IMG/VR virus record: IMGVR_UViG_3300021478_000117
Coordinates: 1-22,024 of that record
Source of the DNA: a virus
Strand: one strand, 5' to 3'
DNA: 22,024 nucleotides
The position numbers and the translations under genes were made by a program. Positions 136 through 22,024 of this stretch are shown in pieces (position 1 is the stretch's first letter; every line of letters starts with the position of its first letter). Under the pieces are notes generated by a model. That model was not told the origin of the DNA and ran no database searches. It saw nothing but the letters and a program-made list of their open reading frames with translations.

Positions 136-1131
136 TTAGGCGGCCGCCTTCATGCCGATGCGCGCGAGCTTCTTCGGCGACGGCGCGTCAGGCGAGAACT
201 TCCCCTTCGCCAGGGCGGCGCCCTTGTGCTCGCGGATCTCTCTGCGGATGGCCTCCATGCCGCGGGCGCCGGCGTCGCTGTCGCCGTTGCCGAGGAGGGC
301 CGTCGACTCGGCGTCCATCACGAACTCGCCGGGCGACAGCATCGCCTTGACGTGGTCGCTGCGGCCGTCGCCCTTGCCGTCGCCCGGAACGAAGTTGCCG
401 TCCGGTCCACCGCTGGCGAAGTGTCGCTCCGGCATCCCGCTGAGTCCGGCGAGTTGTGGGTAGCCGCCGTGCATCATGCGGATGGGGCCGCCCGAGAAGT
501 AGCCGGCGTTAGGCAGGACTTGGCCTGGGAGGGTAGGCTGCGGCGCGGAGGCCCCGAACTGGTTGCCGCCGAAGCGGTTACCGCCGAACTGGGCGCCGCC
601 GAACTGGTTGCCGCCGAAGCGGTTACCGCCGAGAGGCGTCGGAGGCGGCGAGCCGGGGACAGTCTGCATCGCCTGCGGAGGCGGACCCATCGCGCTCATC
701 TGCGGCATCGGGGGCCTGGGCTGCATCGGAGGGGGAGTCGGCATCGGCGGGGGTGTGGGCATCGGCGGCGGGGCCGGCGGCGGCTGGGCGGCCTTGATGG
801 CGGCGAGCGCGAATTCCGAGGCCGTCATCTGCGTGCCGGGTACGAGGGCAGTCGAGGGGTTGCTGTTACGGGTGATGCGCGCCACGAGGGCGGGGGCGCT
901 CGATATCGCCGGTGGCGGGCGGTCCTGCGCCGTCACGACGGCCGGAGCCGGTGGCGGGTTCGGGTTGACCTCGGTGGCGTCGATCGTGTCCTTGCGGGAC
1001 TTCTTCTTGAAGGGGCTCTCGAACTGGCCGGGGTTCGCGGCGTTGAGCGCCGCGAAGTCGTTCGCGGCGTTGTTGCCAGTTCCCAGCCCGGGGTCGGGGG
1101 AGTTGTAGCCTTGGTCGAAGAATCCGGCCAT
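136..1131 (-). CDS. Proline/glycine-rich virion-associated protein with conserved phage C-terminal domain
   Basis: This 331-residue protein has three zones. The N-terminal third is polar and low in complexity. The middle (about 115-200) holds PPPMPT hexapeptide repeats followed by five GGN(Q/R)F-type pentapeptides. The C-terminal 100 residues contain HFASGG, then GDGRSD, AMLSPGEFVMDAES, LLGNGDSDAGA and HKGAALAKGKFSP. That C-terminal block is a pattern I recognise from many phage structural-module proteins (GxGRSD...LSxGEFVxxA...LGxG), whose exact role is not settled. The disordered middle probably acts as a flexible spacer. The ATG at 1131 has AGGAG upstream at 1142-1146 with a ten-base spacing. 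The gene ends next to the start of the truncated left-edge gene. Coding is well supported by the conserved C-terminus; function is uncertain. Confidence 0.85.
   Translation of the reverse strand: MAGFFDQGYNSPDPGLGTGNNAANDFAALNAANPGQFESPFKKKSRKDTIDATEVNPNPPPAPAVVTAQDRPPPAISSAPALVARITRNSNPSTALVPGTQMTASEFALAAIKAAQPPPAPPPMPTPPPMPTPPPMQPRPPMPQMSAMGPPPQAMQTVPGSPPPTPLGGNRFGGNQFGGAQFGGNRFGGNQFGASAPQPTLPGQVLPNAGYFSGGPIRMMHGGYPQLAGLSGMPERHFASGGPDGNFVPGDGKGDGRSDHVKAMLSPGEFVMDAESTALLGNGDSDAGARGMEAIRREIREHKGAALAKGKFSPDAPSPKKLARIGMKAAA
554..628. repeat. Five 15-bp tandem repeats encoding GGN(Q/R)F
   Basis: Five consecutive 15-bp units fill 554-628. Read on the plus strand they follow an order A-B-C-A-B: units 1 and 4 are identical (ccgaactggttgccg) and units 2 and 5 are identical (ccgaagcggttaccg). 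The third is a variant with an Ala codon in place of Asn. On the coding (minus) strand they encode GGNRF, GGNQF, GGAQF, GGNRF, GGNQF. The A-B...A-B order suggests duplication of multi-unit blocks rather than one unit at a time. Confidence 0.9.
722..775. repeat. Three 18-bp tandem repeats encoding the PPPMPT tract
   Basis: Three imperfect 18-bp units (722-739, 740-757, 758-775) share the core gcatcgg followed by a G-run on the plus strand. On the coding strand they give the Pro-rich hexapeptide repeat PPPMPT. Together with the GGNxF repeats they form the low-complexity middle of the gene at 136-1131. Confidence 0.75.
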
Positions 1132-10583: not shown

Positions 10584-11498
10584 TTAGGCGCCGGGGGTGC
10601 CGTACACCGTTCTCCAGTTTGTCCAGCCCACATCCCAGCGGCTCGTAACCTTGTAGCGCATGGAGTCAGTCTCGAAGTCACCTTCCATGCTCTTCTCGGC
10701 CATGCGGCGAGTAATGAACTGGAGGCCCATGCGCTCGTCGGTGGAGATCCACCAAGCGGTCGGCGAGGTCAACCTAGTGATCACGACGTAGCCCTTCGGC
10801 AGAATCTTCGTGCTCATCACCGGGTTGATGTCGTTGTTCGCTTGACCAGTCCTCAGTGCACTCTTCGTGATCACTTCGGCTTGGAATTCGTTGTCGGGGC
10901 TAACCACGAGGCCTTGCGGCGTGATGCGAACCTTCTTCGTGTCGTTGTCCTGAGCCTTGCGGATCTGGATGAGGAGGTTCTCGACCGAGGTCTGAGACAT
11001 CGCGGCCGGGGTGGCCAGGACGTTCGACTGCGTGCCGAAGGCGATGGGGTGCGCGCTGTTGACGAGCGAGACGCCGTCGCCGCCGACGAACGAGCCGCTG
11101 AACGAGTTGTTCAACACGTTCGCCGCGGCAGTCTCTTCGGTCTCGATCATCGCCTGAGCGAGCTGCTCAGAGTAGATCTTGCCCAAATTGATATGATCCC
11201 CGTCCTCGACGAGGACCTTCGTCAGAGCGAAGGCGGCGCCGTACTGGCGGAACACGTAGCGCTTGTCGAACAGGACGCCACCCGACTTGTAGGTGACAGG
11301 CCCGCCGTCGCCCATGGCCGGGGCAGCGCCCAGGCCGTAGAGCACCGGCTCGTCGTGGTAGGCGCGCTTGATGCCCGGCTTGACCCGGAACACCTGCTTG
11401 TACTCGTCCTTGCGGATGTCGTAGACGCCGTCGAAGTGGTCATTCAAAATCGGCTCCACGATGATGCGGAACTGAGTTGAATTCATTGGTGCAGCCAT
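10584..11498 (-). CDS. Major capsid protein
   Basis: This 304-residue protein has the usual length and motif order of a podovirus major capsid protein in the HK97-fold family. In order it shows: N-terminal MNSTQFRIIVEPILNDHF, VYDIRKDEYKQVFRV, a spine-helix region LGKIYSEQLAQAMIETEE, then NSFSGSFVGGDGVSLVNSAHP (in two pieces, about 131-151), LLIQIRKAQDND, ITPQGLVVSPDNEFQAEVI, NNDINP, TAWWISTDERMGL, SMRYKVTSRWDVGWTN and the C-terminal WRTVYGTPGA. The GGDG...L...HP and Wx2STDE segments are ones I recognise from annotated capsid proteins. AAGAAGGA lies eight bases before the ATG at 11498. A second possible start is M5 (11486). It is preceded by the decoration gene, and a promoter candidate lies upstream of both. 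Confidence 0.9.
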   Translation of the reverse strand: MAAPMNSTQFRIIVEPILNDHFDGVYDIRKDEYKQVFRVKPGIKRAYHDEPVLYGLGAAPAMGDGGPVTYKSGGVLFDKRYVFRQYGAAFALTKVLVEDGDHINLGKIYSEQLAQAMIETEETAAANVLNNSFSGSFVGGDGVSLVNSAHPIAFGTQSNVLATPAAMSQTSVENLLIQIRKAQDNDTKKVRITPQGLVVSPDNEFQAEVITKSALRTGQANNDINPVMSTKILPKGYVVITRLTSPTAWWISTDERMGLQFITRRMAEKSMEGDFETDSMRYKVTSRWDVGWTNWRTVYGTPGA

Positions 11499-15943: not shown

Positions 15944-18628
15944 TCACTTCTTACCGCCGACGCCCTTGCCGTTGCTGATCGCGGGCTTATGCTTCCCGGC
16001 CTTGATGGCCATCTGCTCGATCTCGATGGCCGTCTCGTTGTCCATCTCAGTCGTCTTGATGTTGGTGTCGGCCTGCGTCTGCGTGGCCTGGGCGGCGACG
16101 GTATTACGATCGTCGGCAACCTTGATGTTTGCGGCGTCGACGAGGTGCTTCTTCTCGGCGTTGTCCTGGTCGGCCTGAGCCTGCTGGTTCGCGCGGTCGG
16201 TGTCGGCCTGAGTCTTCGTGGCCTCGGTCTGCGCCTTGAGGTTGTCGGCGTTCTGCTGCGCGTTGACCTTCTGGCTCTCGATCTGAGCCTTAGAGTCGAC
16301 TTCCTTGGCCTTGACCTGGAGGGCGGCCTGATCGTTCGCGGCCTTGGCCTTGTCGGCCTCGGTCTGGCGCTGGACGTCCTGCTGCGCGACGACGCTGGGG
16401 TCCATCGGCGTCGGCGGCTGCATCTGCTTGATGAGGGCCTGCGCCTTCTGAATGAGCGGCATCACGGACGCCAGCTCCTGCTGGGCGTGCTGCATGACTT
16501 CCGGCGTCAGCTCCGCCATCAGGCGGTCGAGCTGCACTTCAAGTCCCTTGACCTGTTCGAGGGCGTCTAGCGTGATGCGCTGGTCCTTGAAGGTCTCTCG
16601 CAGTACGTGATTCGTGGCGACGAGCATCGCGTCGGCGTACCAGAGAGCCAAGTGCTCGCCGAAGTGGTTGAGCATCGTCGGCAGGAACTTCATAGCCAGG
16701 ATGGGGTTCGAGCCGAATAGAGGGCTGTCCATGTAGGCGGCGTGCTGCGCAATGTGGCTCTCGTGGTCCTGGCCCGGGTAGGCCTTGAGCGGCAGTCCCT
16801 GAGAGGCCGCGACATTCTCGGCGGCGGCGTTCAGCTCCTGCGGCATCGGTGCGTCGATCAGGAACTGCTCAGGCTCCGGGACCTTCATGGAACGTAGCTT
16901 GTTCAGTTCGACTTCTCGGATCTTGTAGACCTGGGGTAGCGCGATCGCGGACTGCGACAGCATCATCGCGGAGGCCTGACGCTGCGTGTCGCTGAAGATG
17001 CGGGGGTCGCTGACGGGGCGAACGACCATCGGTCCCTGGTAGTCTTCCTTCGTCACGAGGACTTCACCAAATTGGTCTACGATCTGCGCGTTCTCGACGG
17101 TCTGCTGGTTGTAGTCCCAGAGCTGCTTCAGGAAGCGGCGCATCGAGCGGTGCTGGCGCGCGAAGACGGCACCGAAGGACTTGAGGCCCTGCTCCACCAT
17201 CATGTTGGCGGTGCCGACCGGCGTCTCGCCGTTCATCTTGTTGAACTCGTCGAAGGTCGTGCGGATCACGCCGCGGCCGCCGTCGACGAGGAAGCCCAGG
17301 AGCTGGAACAGCGTCGGGGAGGGCTGCGGGAACACGAGCGGCATGTACGTCTTGCGGATGTCGTCCATCGCGAGCGTGCCTTGCATCTCGGTGACGGAGC
17401 CGACGTTCGGGGCGATCTTCTGGCCGCCGGCGGTGGCGCCGCCCTTGAGCTTGACACCCGTCTGCGTGCTGTTGAGTAGGGCGGCGTCCATGAGCGCACG
17501 AAGCGCGCCGGTCGCGGCCGCCGAGAGGCCACCGATCATGTGCGTGAAGCCCACCGGATAACCGCCGCGCCACGGCCAGAACGGCCACTCGATGAGGAAG
17601 TCCAGGCGGAACTTGTTGGGGTCGTTCGGCTTCCAGTTGCGGTAGATCGATAGCACCTTGCGGGTCTGCTCATCGACCGTGACGAGGTACGGCAGCGGTC
17701 GCTCGTCGCCGTCAAGCTTCAGGAACGTCGAGCACTCGTACACGACGCGGACGTCGTCGATGTTCTCCGTCGGCAAGTCGCGGCCGATGATCTTGTCGTT
17801 CGAGCGCGAGGACAGCGTCTGCTCTACGTTGTCGCTGGACGTCGCGGGGTCGATCTCGTCTAGCCAAAGTCCGGCCTCGACGTTCGCCTCGAAGGTCTGC
17901 CGGTCGACGTCCATCTCGTGCGTGATGCGCTGCTGGGAGTAGAAGTCGCCATCTGACCAGGGGCGGTGGACCTTATCGATGTAGACTACGATAGCGTCGG
18001 GGCGGCCGTCGACGGGGGTCATCTTCGTGTAGAAGGCGCCGCCGATGCCCTGCTGAGTGAAGCCGGCCTCAAGCTCACTGTAGAACGAAGGCATCTCCTC
18101 CGTCAGCTGGTAGTTCATGTGGCGCGACGTGCGGTCGGCGCGGTCGTTCTTGTCGTTCGTGGGGATGCCGTACGTCTGGCCCTTGACTGGGCCCTCGGGA
18201 GGCAGCAATTCTCCAGTGACGCGCGCCGAGTAGTCGACGACGGCCTCCGTCATCATGGGGTGTACGACGCGAGATGCGCCAGGGAAAGGGGCGCCGCCGG
18301 GGGCATCGTTACCGAGTCCGGTGCGGCGGAGGCCCTCTTCCTGTTGGGCGTCGCGCTTCTGTCGTGCGTCCTTGTCGACCTCGATCGAATCCAGTAGGTC
18401 CATCGCGATGTCGGAGAGGTCGCGGGCGTCCATCCCGTCGGCGAGGTTGTCGAAGTGGGCCTTGTCGCTATCCGACGTCCCTTCGCCGAGGTCTATGTCT
18501 GCGGTGCCGTCGTCGTTCAGCGTGATCTCGCTGCCGGCGGGCTTCGTGGGCTTTAGTGTTGAGGCGGGGTCGCTGAGGGTCTCGCGCATGAGGTCCACTG
18601 CGCGGCCGCCTCGAATATCCTCAGCCAT
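15944..18628 (-). CDS. Portal protein
   Basis: This 894-residue protein forms the twelve-subunit ring through which DNA enters and leaves the head. The diagnostic region is PFPGASRVVHPMMTEAVVDY (114-133) followed by GELLPPEGPVKG (139-150), matching the F.GAS.V.HP...EA......EL.P..GP pattern of large podovirus portals. Further signs are DFLIEWPFWPWRGG, a helical wing with GALRALMDAALLNS and LKGGATAGGQ, and AFDEFNKMNGETPVGTANMM-like helices (barrel region). From about residue 745 to 870 is a long Q/A/K/D-rich coiled coil (TEADKAKAANDQAAL, NAQQNADNLKAQTEATKTQA), then a basic end. Its ATG directly abuts the stop of the large upstream protein. Length is at the upper range for portals because of the acidic N-terminus and C-terminal coil. 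Confidence 0.9.
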   Translation of the reverse strand: MAEDIRGGRAVDLMRETLSDPASTLKPTKPAGSEITLNDDGTADIDLGEGTSDSDKAHFDNLADGMDARDLSDIAMDLLDSIEVDKDARQKRDAQQEEGLRRTGLGNDAPGGAPFPGASRVVHPMMTEAVVDYSARVTGELLPPEGPVKGQTYGIPTNDKNDRADRTSRHMNYQLTEEMPSFYSELEAGFTQQGIGGAFYTKMTPVDGRPDAIVVYIDKVHRPWSDGDFYSQQRITHEMDVDRQTFEANVEAGLWLDEIDPATSSDNVEQTLSSRSNDKIIGRDLPTENIDDVRVVYECSTFLKLDGDERPLPYLVTVDEQTRKVLSIYRNWKPNDPNKFRLDFLIEWPFWPWRGGYPVGFTHMIGGLSAAATGALRALMDAALLNSTQTGVKLKGGATAGGQKIAPNVGSVTEMQGTLAMDDIRKTYMPLVFPQPSPTLFQLLGFLVDGGRGVIRTTFDEFNKMNGETPVGTANMMVEQGLKSFGAVFARQHRSMRRFLKQLWDYNQQTVENAQIVDQFGEVLVTKEDYQGPMVVRPVSDPRIFSDTQRQASAMMLSQSAIALPQVYKIREVELNKLRSMKVPEPEQFLIDAPMPQELNAAAENVAASQGLPLKAYPGQDHESHIAQHAAYMDSPLFGSNPILAMKFLPTMLNHFGEHLALWYADAMLVATNHVLRETFKDQRITLDALEQVKGLEVQLDRLMAELTPEVMQHAQQELASVMPLIQKAQALIKQMQPPTPMDPSVVAQQDVQRQTEADKAKAANDQAALQVKAKEVDSKAQIESQKVNAQQNADNLKAQTEATKTQADTDRANQQAQADQDNAEKKHLVDAANIKVADDRNTVAAQATQTQADTNIKTTEMDNETAIEIEQMAIKAGKHKPAISNGKGVGGKK

Positions 18629-21600
18629 CTAGATTTTGCTCCCGAAGTAGCCGTGACCGATCTCGCCGCCATGCGAGTCGAAGAACATACTCTTCCAGCC
18701 TAACATATCGTCGTCGACCCTCCCGCCGCGGGCGTTAGGCTCCGGGATATGGTTGAAGTCGTAGGGGGCGTCGTGGATTCCGGACATGTCAGGCACCGAC
18801 ATCGCCGCACCACGAGGAGGCATGCGTGTCCCGCCAGAGCTGCCACCGATCTCGCCGGACAGCAGAAGGTCGCGAGCCTCCTCTGGATGAATTCCGCGCC
18901 TCTCGGCTACGTCGGCCATGTGGTTCGCGATCATTTCAAGCTTAGAGGGCCCTATGTAGCGGACACCGGTCTGGGGGCCGCCTAGATTCCACAGCAGCGC
19001 CTGGGCGTCGCGGGGCCTCATACCAAGGCGACCAGCGACCTTGTCATTGAACCACGGAACGGTATCGCTGTATTCCGTATTAGACATCACGCCATTTCTC
19101 ACGGCAGCAGTGTCCGCAGTGGACACGTCTGGGTAGCCCAAGATGCGATTGAAGTGACTATCCGCGACGGGTCGATCCGAGTACGGGAAGCGCGGGTCAG
19201 TCGCGGCAGCGTAGGTGGGAACCTTATGGCTGGCGGGCCACAAGCGACCTGTCTCTTCGTAGTCTAGGAGATTAGGAGCCTGCGCTGTTCTTCCATAAGA
19301 GTGACCTTTCAGGCCGCGCAGTTCATCGGGAAAATCTGCAGATCTCTCTTCCTCTGGGATTACATGATACCTCAAGAAATCGTCCAGGCGTCCCTGTTTG
19401 GCAAGCCAATTAGCATAGAAGCCGCGATTTATCTCGGTCTTGGGGTCGCTGCCGGCCGACATGACGGCGGTGCGGTTGTTGAGGTCCGTCATGGCGCGGT
19501 CGCCGGTGCCCAGCTCTCGCATGCGATCCCACAGAGGAGACATCTCGTACCACGAGCGCGTCAGCTTGATGTCTGGATCTGACAGGCCGGCCGATAGGGC
19601 GCCGCGAAGGCGAGCGGCGTTAGTATTCGTAAGGACGCGAGGACTGGTCTTGGCGGTGCCACTGAGATTGAAGGGTGGCGACTGCAAAAACGGACGGATG
19701 CTGTCGAGGTCTCGGTTGCCCTGCGACAACTCGTCGAGGGAGTTGCGGGTATGGCCGAAGAGCTTGTACATGTTGCCCTCCTGGCCGGGGTCGGCGATCA
19801 GGCGAGACCTCGCATCGGACACTAGCTCCGGTGCGGGCTTATAGATTCCAGGGAAGGACTCGCGTGCAGGGTCGATCAGGTATTTCGCGGCGCGACCGAT
19901 CGCTTGCCCGACGGGGCCCAGGTCCTTGTGGTGCTCGACGTCGTCCTGCTGCCACATCCACTCAGGGAGCAGGCCGGCCTTCTGGTCGGCGTAGACGGTG
20001 TCGGCGCCGCTCGCGCCCTTGTTGGCGGCGGACTGCGGCCCGAAATTCACCCAGGAGTTCTGTCCGCGAGTTTCCGAGGTAGCGGCGGGTATGGCATCCG
20101 AAGAGTACGAGCGCATGTGGTTGAGCCACGCCCGCTCTTCACCGGGTGCGCGGAAAAATGGATTACCGGGCCCGAAGTGTCCGAGCGCATCGTGTACAAC
20201 ACGAAATGCGTCGTTGGCAGTCGCGTTATCCAAGTCTCCAACTCTGCCAACTCTCTTGAGGAGCGGATTATCGCCGATATCAGTCTGTGTTCCATAGCCT
20301 TGCTCCGTTGGGAAAACCTTGAGTCGGCCATTCTGTACGAGGTCGCGATAGCCTAGTGACGGCGACGCCGCGTAGGGGTCTCCCTCTCCATGCTTCAGAA
20401 ACTCGAACTTCGCGCCGGTGCCTTCGAGGGCGCGGTACTGGTCCATCGTCTCGTCGATCAGCGCGTCGTATGCGCGCTTCACGCGCGGGTCCGACGGGTC
20501 GTGCTTCATGTCCTCGTAGCCCTGCGCGATCTTTCGGGCGCGGTCCTCGTCGAGCTTGGGGTACGACGTGATGGGGTAGTCGGTGCCGTAGCGCGTCGCG
20601 AACTTGTGTGCGACGTCCTCGAACTCCTTGATGGGGTGCGCCGGCATCTGGAATCCGCCCGGGAGCTTAACGGTGCTGGGCTTGCCGGCGGCCTCGCGAA
20701 GGATGGTCGTCAGTCCCTTGCCGACGGGTCCTAGGTCGGCGTGGTACTCGACGCCGCCACCACGCGCGAAGGCCTCGCTGCCTAGACGGAGCGGTGGTTG
20801 AGGTATGAAGTGCTGAGGAATTATTGGAGTGTCGGCGCCCTGCGGCAAAAACTTATCCTGCATACGCTGGACAGCCTCCTCCACCGGGTCACGTCCGAAC
20901 TCTTTTGGATTCACGTTGTTGAGTCGCACGAGTGCGACGTCGTCGCCCATGTTCTCCATCGCACGCATCCGGTGGCGACCCTCGTGACCTTCAATTCCAG
21001 TCATGCCTGTGGGGCGCGGACTACCTATCAAAGGCGTATTTGAAAACAGGCTACCTTGTGGTGATTCCTCCCCATAGCTCTCTGGCGTCTTGTACATCCA
21101 CAATTCGGGCGGCCTGTCCATTCCTTTGCTCTGGATATGACTGGCGAGTCGATCAAGGTACGCCTCCTGCGTCTGGTCCTGACGCGACGGCATGCGGCCA
21201 GCGCTGCGGGGCATGGACTGGAAGCGAGGATACGGAACTGCGCGTGACGCCGACTCTGGAAGGGGAAGTGCGTAATCCTCGAAGGCGTACGGTGGTAGCG
21301 TCGTAAACAGGCTGTTGCGGTACTCGCCCTTGCCCGACATCGGATTGAAGGTATCGAGCAGCCCCTTCGTCGAGTAGCGGTCGAGGTTCGCCAAGTCGGC
21401 GGCCTGCTCCATTCGTGCGCCCTGGAGGGAGCCGAAGGAATTGCGGATCGTGCGGATGGCCTTCGCGACCTTGCCGCCGTCGGCGTATCCGCGCATCCCA
21501 ACTTCGGGTGGAAGCTCCTGGGGCGTCACGGTGTCCTCGGACGGAGACGTCAATGCGTCCCAGACACCGAGGCCGCCCTGTATCGCCAGAGCCGGAAGCT

Positions 21601-22024
21601 TGCCGCTCGCGGACGTGACAACGTTGGCGACATCGAGCGGAGCGCCGACGGGGCCCATCTGCCTCGTGAAGCGAGTGGCGTCCGGCAGGAAGTCGGCAGC
21701 CCCACGGACTATGCGCGCGAGATCCTCCGGTTCAAGGGAGGTGTCGACGTTCATCAGTCGACGTCCGGCCTCCTTGAGGGAGCGGCCGGTGTTCGGCATC
21801 CGGTGCCAGCTATGCGTGACCGGGAAGGGGCGGTGACGATCCATCGCGTCGTACATGCCGGCGTCTCGGTCGTCACCGTCTATGAAGCGCTCGTACGGAC
21901 TGCGCGCCGGGCCACCGGTGGCATAGACCTGAGCCGGCGGATTCGAGCCGGCAGACGACGGCGCGGTCTGGAAATTATAGAAGGGCGCGGCGAAGCGCCC
22001 GCCGTCGCGGTCGTCGTAGGAGGC
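18629..22024 (-). CDS. Very large multi-module phage protein, likely virion/injected (start outside window)
   Basis: The frame is open from 22024 to the TAG at 18629; a Met at 21856 is internal or a later start, since 56 in-frame codons precede it. Numbering from that Met (1075 residues): 123-130 YADGGKV; 288-304 GIEGHEGRHRMRAMENMG, like the GxHRxxA patch of ParB-type folds; 369-379 VEYHADLGPVG; 405-600 a helical block ending in FRVVHDALGHFG (551-562), EER (573-575), H580 and SETRGQNSWVNFGP; 640-650 VEHHKDLGPVG again; 770-960 a block with DPKTEINRGFYANWLAKQG, DSHFNR (899-904) and AQALLW (951-956); then a Gly/Pro tail with ARGGRVDDD. Several unrelated modules joined by similar linkers resemble polyvalent proteins thought to enter the host with phage DNA. 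It abuts the portal gene, suggesting late expression. No module function is proven. Confidence 0.8.
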   Translation of the reverse strand, partial: ASYDDRDGGRFAAPFYNFQTAPSSAGSNPPAQVYATGGPARSPYERFIDGDDRDAGMYDAMDRHRPFPVTHSWHRMPNTGRSLKEAGRRLMNVDTSLEPEDLARIVRGAADFLPDATRFTRQMGPVGAPLDVANVVTSASGKLPALAIQGGLGVWDALTSPSEDTVTPQELPPEVGMRGYADGGKVAKAIRTIRNSFGSLQGARMEQAADLANLDRYSTKGLLDTFNPMSGKGEYRNSLFTTLPPYAFEDYALPLPESASRAVPYPRFQSMPRSAGRMPSRQDQTQEAYLDRLASHIQSKGMDRPPELWMYKTPESYGEESPQGSLFSNTPLIGSPRPTGMTGIEGHEGRHRMRAMENMGDDVALVRLNNVNPKEFGRDPVEEAVQRMQDKFLPQGADTPIIPQHFIPQPPLRLGSEAFARGGGVEYHADLGPVGKGLTTILREAAGKPSTVKLPGGFQMPAHPIKEFEDVAHKFATRYGTDYPITSYPKLDEDRARKIAQGYEDMKHDPSDPRVKRAYDALIDETMDQYRALEGTGAKFEFLKHGEGDPYAASPSLGYRDLVQNGRLKVFPTEQGYGTQTDIGDNPLLKRVGRVGDLDNATANDAFRVVHDALGHFGPGNPFFRAPGEERAWLNHMRSYSSDAIPAATSETRGQNSWVNFGPQSAANKGASGADTVYADQKAGLLPEWMWQQDDVEHHKDLGPVGQAIGRAAKYLIDPARESFPGIYKPAPELVSDARSRLIADPGQEGNMYKLFGHTRNSLDELSQGNRDLDSIRPFLQSPPFNLSGTAKTSPRVLTNTNAARLRGALSAGLSDPDIKLTRSWYEMSPLWDRMRELGTGDRAMTDLNNRTAVMSAGSDPKTEINRGFYANWLAKQGRLDDFLRYHVIPEEERSADFPDELRGLKGHSYGRTAQAPNLLDYEETGRLWPASHKVPTYAAATDPRFPYSDRPVADSHFNRILGYPDVSTADTAAVRNGVMSNTEYSDTVPWFNDKVAGRLGMRPRDAQALLWNLGGPQTGVRYIGPSKLEMIANHMADVAERRGIHPEEARDLLLSGEIGGSSGGTRMPPRGAAMSVPDMSGIHDAPYDFNHIPEPNARGGRVDDDMLGWKSMFFDSHGGEIGHGYFGSKI

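What the first reader, a model, noticed from the sequence alone, without database searches (positions are those of the whole stretch)
18629..22024. Giant multi-module protein abutting the portal gene
At least 1131 residues, with at least three blocks of different character (ParB-like patch, HDxxGH block, DSHxxR/QALLW block) joined by short glycine linkers. Known polyvalent proteins of phages and conjugative elements combine effector domains like this and are proposed to be injected. None of these blocks has a function I can name with certainty, so this is the best candidate for undescribed biology in the window.
Basis: partly seen in the sequence, partly recalled or inferred. Interest (0 to 1): 0.6.

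Follow-up and report, generated by a model that had tools for sequence, protein, structure and literature searches.

The report
Phage protein with swappable modules
Next to its DNA-entry gene this virus of bacteria encodes one long protein built from interchangeable modules, probably packed into the virus and injected into the host; two of the modules recur together in very distant phages, and a short repeated "[YF]-A-x-G-G" peptide marks many of the places where modules are swapped.

Summary
In detail: 18629-22024 (-) is one open frame of 1131 aa, lacking probably only its first Met, directly upstream of a real portal gene. It is a mosaic. In 84-85% identical relatives (1341, 1475 aa), whole extra modules (ART-like, JAB-like, one unknown) are inserted, mostly at a [YF]AxGG tag; in one relative the module is flanked by a 24-bp direct repeat covering the tag. 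Tags are about 34-fold over shuffles and rare elsewhere in the phage. Block B (HDxxGH, aa 419-695) recurs in giant polyvalent proteins carrying ART-PolyVal, LPD22 or LPD38, as a stand-alone phage protein and in Micromonosporaceae chromosomes; it matches no Pfam model or solved fold. Block C (aa 696-1060, DSHxxR/QALLW) is a divergent homologue of DUF7178 (PF23802), shown by stepwise profile search with decoys. B and DUF7178/C are recurrently fused, in either order, or neighbours, including Rhodococcus phage E3 gp205, recorded as a structural protein. The ParB reading of block A was not supported. Best explanation: a virion-packaged polyvalent protein, new to the catalogue, whose B+C pair acts early in infection, perhaps on DNA. 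Packaging, injection and chemistry remain untested.

The parts
18629..22024 (-). Giant multi-module gene, 1131 aa in window (complete but for the start codon)
   Evidence: Open frame; homologues of 1222-1475 aa in L002-L005
21488..21925 (-). Module M0 (aa 34-179), predicted helical, found at the N-terminus here and at the C-terminal side in L112, L115 and L116
   Evidence: Local BLASTP matches L108 31-182 to L116 1183-1338 and L115 1398-1577 to L116 1184-1345; window aa 101-423 matches L108 98-423
20771..21487 (-). Block A (aa 180-418), EGHEGRHR motif at 20969-20992; ParB-like by motif only
   Evidence: Homologues in L113, L112, L115, L116, L005; no ParB_N match
19940..20770 (-). Block B (aa 419-695), HDALGH 20177-20194, GEERAW 20126-20143, ETRGQNSW 20051-20074
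   Evidence: Alignments A1, A4; about 200 phage records; PHROG 3170 E=5.8e-10
18845..19939 (-). Block C (aa 696-1060), divergent DUF7178 homologue: SWYEM 19541-19555, SAGSD 19445-19459, HKVPTY 19211-19228, ADSHF 19151-19165, QALLWN 18986-19003
   Evidence: Stepwise profile searches both ways; Foldseek match to a DUF7178 protein
18632..18844 (-). C-terminal tail with NARGGRVDDD (18707-18736), a short conserved end peptide
   Evidence: Similar GG.VDDD peptide near the ends of the L113 and L116 proteins, and GGRVDGDLDL / RIDDDLDL in L005
21911..21925 (-). Junction tag 1 YATGG; L003 has a 101-aa module inserted exactly here, between YAEGG and YAAGG
21473..21487 (-). Junction tag 2 YADGG(KVAK); L002 has an ART-like and L003 a JAB-like module inserted here
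   Evidence: 24-bp direct repeat flanks the L002 insert
20756..20770 (-). Junction tag 3 FARGG
15944..18628 (-). Portal gene, directly downstream of the giant gene
   Evidence: tblastn to portal / head-to-tail connecting proteins
10584..11498 (-). Major capsid protein (context)
   Evidence: Pfam Phage_capsid_4 E=2.9e-14

Best explanation
The gene encodes a polyvalent protein of a tailed phage, made with the late genes from the terminase-portal locus, probably packaged in the head and delivered into the next host with the DNA (inferred). It is a chain of independently folding modules. Shown: the modules are gained, lost and reordered between relatives, and [YF]AxGG tags mark many of the exchange points. 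Shown: block C is homologous to DUF7178, and block B and DUF7178/C recur together, fused in either order or as neighbouring genes, in very distant phages and prophages, so they probably work as a pair. Inferred: the pair acts on nucleic acid early in infection, C as a glycosylase-like domain (two phage records name DUF7178 proteins DNA glycosylase or N-glycosylase/DNA lyase) and B as a metal-using helical enzyme (HDxxGH, GEE..W..H, ETRGQNS), either degrading host DNA or protecting or repairing phage DNA. Inferred: the tags serve as recombination joints and perhaps as cleavage or sorting sites that free the modules.
For: Module gain and loss: window against L002, L003, L005 proteins; tag-to-tag insertions with a 24-bp direct repeat. 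Tag counts 43 against 1.27 in shuffles (maximum 6), 1 in 23,375 control residues; alignment ends lie near tags 2.7 times more often than rotated controls (0.256 against 0.093, maximum 0.163). Context: portal, terminase large subunit upstream in relatives, capsid downstream. Block B in proteins with ART-PolyVal, LPD22, LPD38. C to DUF7178: strict chain E<1e-3 at each step (L352 at 1e-9, itself over Pfam's DUF7178 cut-off; Roseobacter phage CRP-1 at 7.9e-4), reversed decoys none, block B drift control none; shared W-Y, S, K, D, Q, W columns, the D invariant in 40 sequences; fold match. Pairing: 26 of 80 viral B loci and 8 of 48 bacterial B loci have DUF7178/C fused or nearby, against 0 of 79 unrelated viral loci, P=3e-9. 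Two folded domains with a low-confidence linker.
Against: No domain of the window protein reaches a curated Pfam or NCBIfam model, and Pfam's own DUF7178 model does not see block C directly; direct hhalign of C against DUF7178 was weak (probability 2.5-4.8%). No solved structure resembles the model, so the chemistry is unproven. The glycosylase label rests on annotators' names. 54 of 80 viral B loci show no DUF7178 nearby (some are short). The control loci were not matched for phage type. No proteomics of this phage group was found.
Confidence: 0.68

Rival explanations
1. A non-enzymatic internal head or ejection protein: the modules are structural or DNA-condensing, and the swapping reflects relaxed constraint on cargo rather than effector choice.
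For: Position beside the portal; Rhodococcus phage E3 gp205, with the same B+DUF7178 pair, is recorded as a structural protein; tags also occur in tape-measure-like proteins.
Against: Blocks B and C keep strictly invariant polar residues typical of active sites across distant phages; B also exists as a solo chromosomal gene in Micromonosporaceae and DUF7178 as a solo gene in cyanophages, away from the virion genes in S-CBP42. The cultured Caulobacter relatives have no gene at all at this position, so it is not an essential structural part of the lineage.
Confidence: 0.15
2. A late-expressed intracellular effector that is not packaged: it acts in the infected cell, for example in superinfection exclusion or host take-over.
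For: No experiment places it in virions; the solo DUF7178 gene of cyanophage S-CBP42 lies outside the structural cluster, and solo B genes sit in bacterial chromosomes.
Against: The gene sits directly before the portal in every family member where that side is held, with a terminase-sized gene upstream in L002-L005 (terminase confirmed by profile in L003); the same locus in phage ctpbd312 carries an unrelated tagged 890-aa protein and Caulobacter phage RLK has none, as for an optional packaged cargo; published reasoning on polyvalent proteins (PMC5512222).
Confidence: 0.13
3. About the tag only: it is merely a low-complexity flexible linker with no role beyond joining, spread by descent.
For: Most family members are related, so tag counts are not independent; Gly and Ala codons in tags are only mildly biased.
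Confidence: 0.3

Closest known systems
Polyvalent proteins of phages and conjugative elements (Iyer et al. 2017, PMC5512222)
   Same: Long multi-domain protein encoded among late virion genes of a terminase-portal phage; relatives share ART-like and JAB-like modules; block B sits in proteins with ART-PolyVal, LPD22 and LPD38.
   Different: None of the window's own blocks matches a catalogued polyvalent domain above cut-off; the words linker and glycine do not occur in that paper's text and no junction tag or B+DUF7178 pairing was seen in the passages read.
DUF7178 (Pfam PF23802)
   Same: Block C shares its conserved residues in order and is reached by stepwise profile search in both directions.
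   Different: Block C is longer, has a separate N-terminal part (PGIYK) and is not recognised by the Pfam model itself.
Rhodococcus phage E3 gp205 (858 aa)
   Same: B followed by DUF7178 in one protein, recorded as structural.
   Different: No [YF]AxGG tags, no block A recognised, and not beside a portal in the stretch read (tail fiber and aminotransferase neighbours).
Phage P1 DdrB and phage N4 virion RNA polymerase
   Same: Large multi-domain proteins carried in the head, the former processed before packaging (as cited in PMC5512222).
   Different: No sequence relation was tested or seen; no zincin peptidase recognised here.

Membership tests
Polyvalent proteins (Iyer et al. 2017) | Several unlike domains in one polypeptide | tested here: met
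   Four modules plus tail; blocks A, B, C and M0 each occur in other combinations, with insertions and reorderings. That their activities differ is inferred, not shown.
Polyvalent proteins (Iyer et al. 2017) | Encoded with virion / portal-terminase genes | tested here: met
   Portal next door, terminase upstream in relatives
Polyvalent proteins (Iyer et al. 2017) | Carries catalogued polyvalent domains | tested here: inconclusive
   None in the window protein; relatives: ART-PolyVal in L110 E=0.0024, below cut-off; other block B carriers over cut-off
Polyvalent proteins (Iyer et al. 2017) | Packaged and injected with the DNA | not testable with these tools
   No proteomics for this phage group
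DUF7178 (PF23802), for block C | Match to the curated model over its cut-off | tested here: not met
   hence called a divergent homologue, not a member
DUF7178 (PF23802), for block C | Homology by iterated profile with decoys | tested here: met
DUF7178 (PF23802), for block C | Shared conserved residues in the same order | tested here: met
   W-Y, S, K, F/Y, D, Q and W columns
DUF7178 (PF23802), for block C | Same predicted fold | tested here: inconclusive
   S-CBP42 protein (a DUF7178 protein) at Foldseek E=0.34, probability 0.84
ParB/sulfiredoxin superfamily, for block A | Match to ParB_N or a ParB-like model | tested here: not met
   only a GHEGRHR motif remains
Aromatic amino acid hydroxylases, for block B (motif lead only, recalled from memory) | Catalytic-domain fold | tested here: not met
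   No such structure among the 50 listed PDB matches (of 107), and none of any kind at E<=0.001; the HDxxGH plus distant Glu pattern is at most analogy

The most novel reading that the evidence does not exclude
Block B plus DUF7178/C is a previously unrecognised two-domain virion effector pair that excises and processes bases in DNA at the moment of infection, and the [YF]AxGG tag is a general junction signal of phage virion cargo at which a phage or host protease cuts the chain into modules.
Probability: 0.15. Interest if true: 0.82.

Novelty: new variant of a known kind. Interest (0 to 1): 0.55.

Why it matters
Polyvalent proteins are thought to be cut into working parts, but where the cuts fall is mostly unknown. 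The tag gives exact candidate sites that mass spectrometry could check. The recurrent pairing of an unannotated domain with DUF7178, fused in either order or adjacent, in an actinophage, in prophage-type loci of Proteobacteria, Verrucomicrobia and Acidobacteria and in viral dark matter, points to a conserved early-infection function for two families that have none assigned, one of which also lives alone in Micromonosporaceae chromosomes.

Tried and rejected
Structure prediction from the single sequence: useless, pLDDT 37. One alignment carrying block A as well failed because the fragments were misplaced, so block A has no model. Solved-structure searches by sequence and by fold: nothing. Pfam, PHROGs and NCBIfam on the window protein: only PHROG 3170, of unknown function. 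Block A and block C by tblastn in 50,697 phage records: no match. Block C in 84,980 bacterial and archaeal genomes: none. ParB reading of A rejected. 'Crystallin beta/gamma' and 'lysin' labels on block B carriers look spurious: no Pfam support for the former in the carrier scanned. Aromatic amino acid hydroxylase idea for B: motif only, fold not matched. Direct hhalign of C against DUF7178 was weak; the intermediate sequences were needed. Papers: no hit for YADGG in a phage context or for DUF7178.

Full report
WHAT IS THERE. The window is a whole virus record of 22,024 bases. The minus-strand frame 18629-22024 is open for 1131 codons to the window end. Four related records give full-length homologues of 1341, 1475 (two records, identical) and 1222 aa; their N-termini show that the window probably lacks only the start Met. 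The gene lies between a terminase large subunit plus one small gene upstream (Terminase_6N E=2.8e-9; small gene PHROG 'DHH phosphoesterase' E=6e-8; read in L003) and a portal downstream.

IT IS A MOSAIC. Window and L002/L003 proteins are 84-85% identical over their longest alignments, yet L002 has an extra ART-like module (WHGSP...; by motif only), and L003 an extra JAB-like module (FFSIHSHP...) and a 101-aa module. The L005 protein lacks block B altogether, and has a JAB-like module with JAMM-type HPH...PSPAD residues and another unknown module. In L113 block C precedes block B, in the window it follows. The N-terminal module of the window lies near the C-terminus of L112, L115 and L116.

JUNCTION TAG. 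Many module boundaries carry [YF]-A-x-G-G-x-[VIL]. In 11 non-redundant block C proteins there are 43 [YF]AxGG against 1.27 in shuffles (maximum 6 in 1000) and one in 23,375 residues of other genes. Ends of local alignments fall near tags 2.7 times more often than rotated controls. The L003 101-aa module lies exactly between YAEGG and YAAGG where the window has one YATGG, and the L002 ART-like module is flanked by a 24-bp direct repeat covering the tag. Codons vary, with a mild preference for GCC and GGC/GGT, so constraint is mainly on the peptide. The hits lie in unrelated proteins: tape-measure-like, small basic, and 80-90-aa proteins of PHROG 17747/16028. Not every junction has a tag: the window B/C junction has only the leader VEHHKDLGPVGQAI, resembling VEYHADLGPVGKGL at the A/B junction.

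BLOCK B. Conserved residues include HDxxGH, GEE..W..H and ETRGQNS. It occurs in about 200 phage records, in giant proteins of 2772-3939 aa or more, two of the scanned ones carrying ART-PolyVal, LPD22 or LPD38, as a solo protein of about 440 aa in many viral contigs, in 600-3500-aa prophage-type proteins of Proteobacteria and others, and as a solo gene of about 230 aa in Micromonosporaceae chromosomes. In two Sphingomonas loci the block B gene stands just before ORFs that look like terminase and portal by size and order (not tested by profile). No Pfam model or solved fold matches.

BLOCK C. No sequence match in phage records or bacterial genomes. A model of B+C (mean pLDDT 77; most of both parts 75-95, linker below 50 at window aa 694-727) matched a 198-aa protein of cyanophage S-CBP42; the 198-aa hypothetical protein of that genome is DUF7178 by Pfam at E=4.9e-48. 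Profile searches over 5,093 translated frames plus DUF7178 seeds then linked C and DUF7178 in both directions; with inclusion E<1e-3 at each step the chain passes through L352, whose segment is over Pfam's own cut-off, and reaches Roseobacter phage CRP-1 at 7.9e-4; reversed decoys gave nothing and the same iteration from block B drew in no DUF7178. Shared columns: W-Y, S, K, F/Y, an Asp invariant in 40 sequences, Q and W. Direct hhalign alone would not have shown it, nor does Pfam's model. So C is a divergent homologue, not a member by Pfam's rule.

THE PAIR. DUF7178/C is fused with B in 14 viral B loci and a neighbour in 12 of 80; in bacterial loci 7 fused and 1 neighbour of 48; dereplicated, 26 of 64. 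None of 79 unrelated viral loci has it (Fisher P=3e-9); those controls were not matched by phage type, so the P value is indicative. Both orders occur. Rhodococcus phage E3 gp205, B then DUF7178 (Pfam E=4.7e-17), is recorded as a structural protein; I could not read any underlying proteomics. Its neighbours in the stretch read are a tail fiber and an aminotransferase gene.

OPTIONAL CARGO. Caulobacter phage RLK, with a 42% identical portal, has only a tRNA between terminase and portal; phage ctpbd312 has a different 890-aa protein there that also carries a YAEGG tag and related GG motifs. The locus looks like a cargo slot.

HOW IT PROBABLY WORKS. Shown: modularity, junction tags, B-DUF7178 association, locus. 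Inferred: packaging in the head near the portal and delivery with DNA, by analogy with phage polyvalent proteins (PMC5512222). Inferred more weakly: C is a glycosylase-like domain (two phage records name DUF7178 proteins so) and B a metal-using enzyme acting in the same pathway on DNA; tags are recombination joints that may also be cut. Iyer et al. propose cutting by metallopeptidase domains; none is recognised here, although relatives carry JAB-like modules.

LIMITS. No proteomics, no solved fold, block A unresolved, tag statistics not fully independent of descent, and the tag's role undecided between joint, cleavage site and binding motif.

Noticed in passing
L130-L208 (IMG/VR loci): YADGGKV occurs in many unrelated environmental phage proteins, including 80-90-aa proteins (RRDDTDFTQYADGGKV..., PHROG 17747/16028), N-terminal tags (MV.R.HKYADGGKV) and tape-measure-like proteins.
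   Followed up: partly
L361-L386: Block B as a solo gene of about 230 aa in Micromonosporaceae and other actinobacterial chromosomes; neighbours not identified.
   Followed up: partly
window 136-1131 (-): 331-aa protein with a single FASGG tag at aa 238 just before a stretch weakly like tape measure proteins (PHROG E about 0.001).
   Followed up: no
L389:2445-5248: Caulobacter phage RLK has two 'large terminase' genes separated by a methyltransferase gene, possibly an interrupted terminase.
   Followed up: no
L003:9203-9961: Small gene between terminase and giant gene matches PHROG 4771 'DHH phosphoesterase' (E=6e-8).
   Followed up: no
L392:4227-6896: Phage ctpbd312 has an 890-aa tagged protein at the same terminase-portal slot, otherwise unrelated by eye.
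   Followed up: partly
window 18632-18844 and ends of L113, L116, L005 proteins: Short conserved C-terminal peptide GG.VDDD.L, a possible packaging signal.
   Followed up: no
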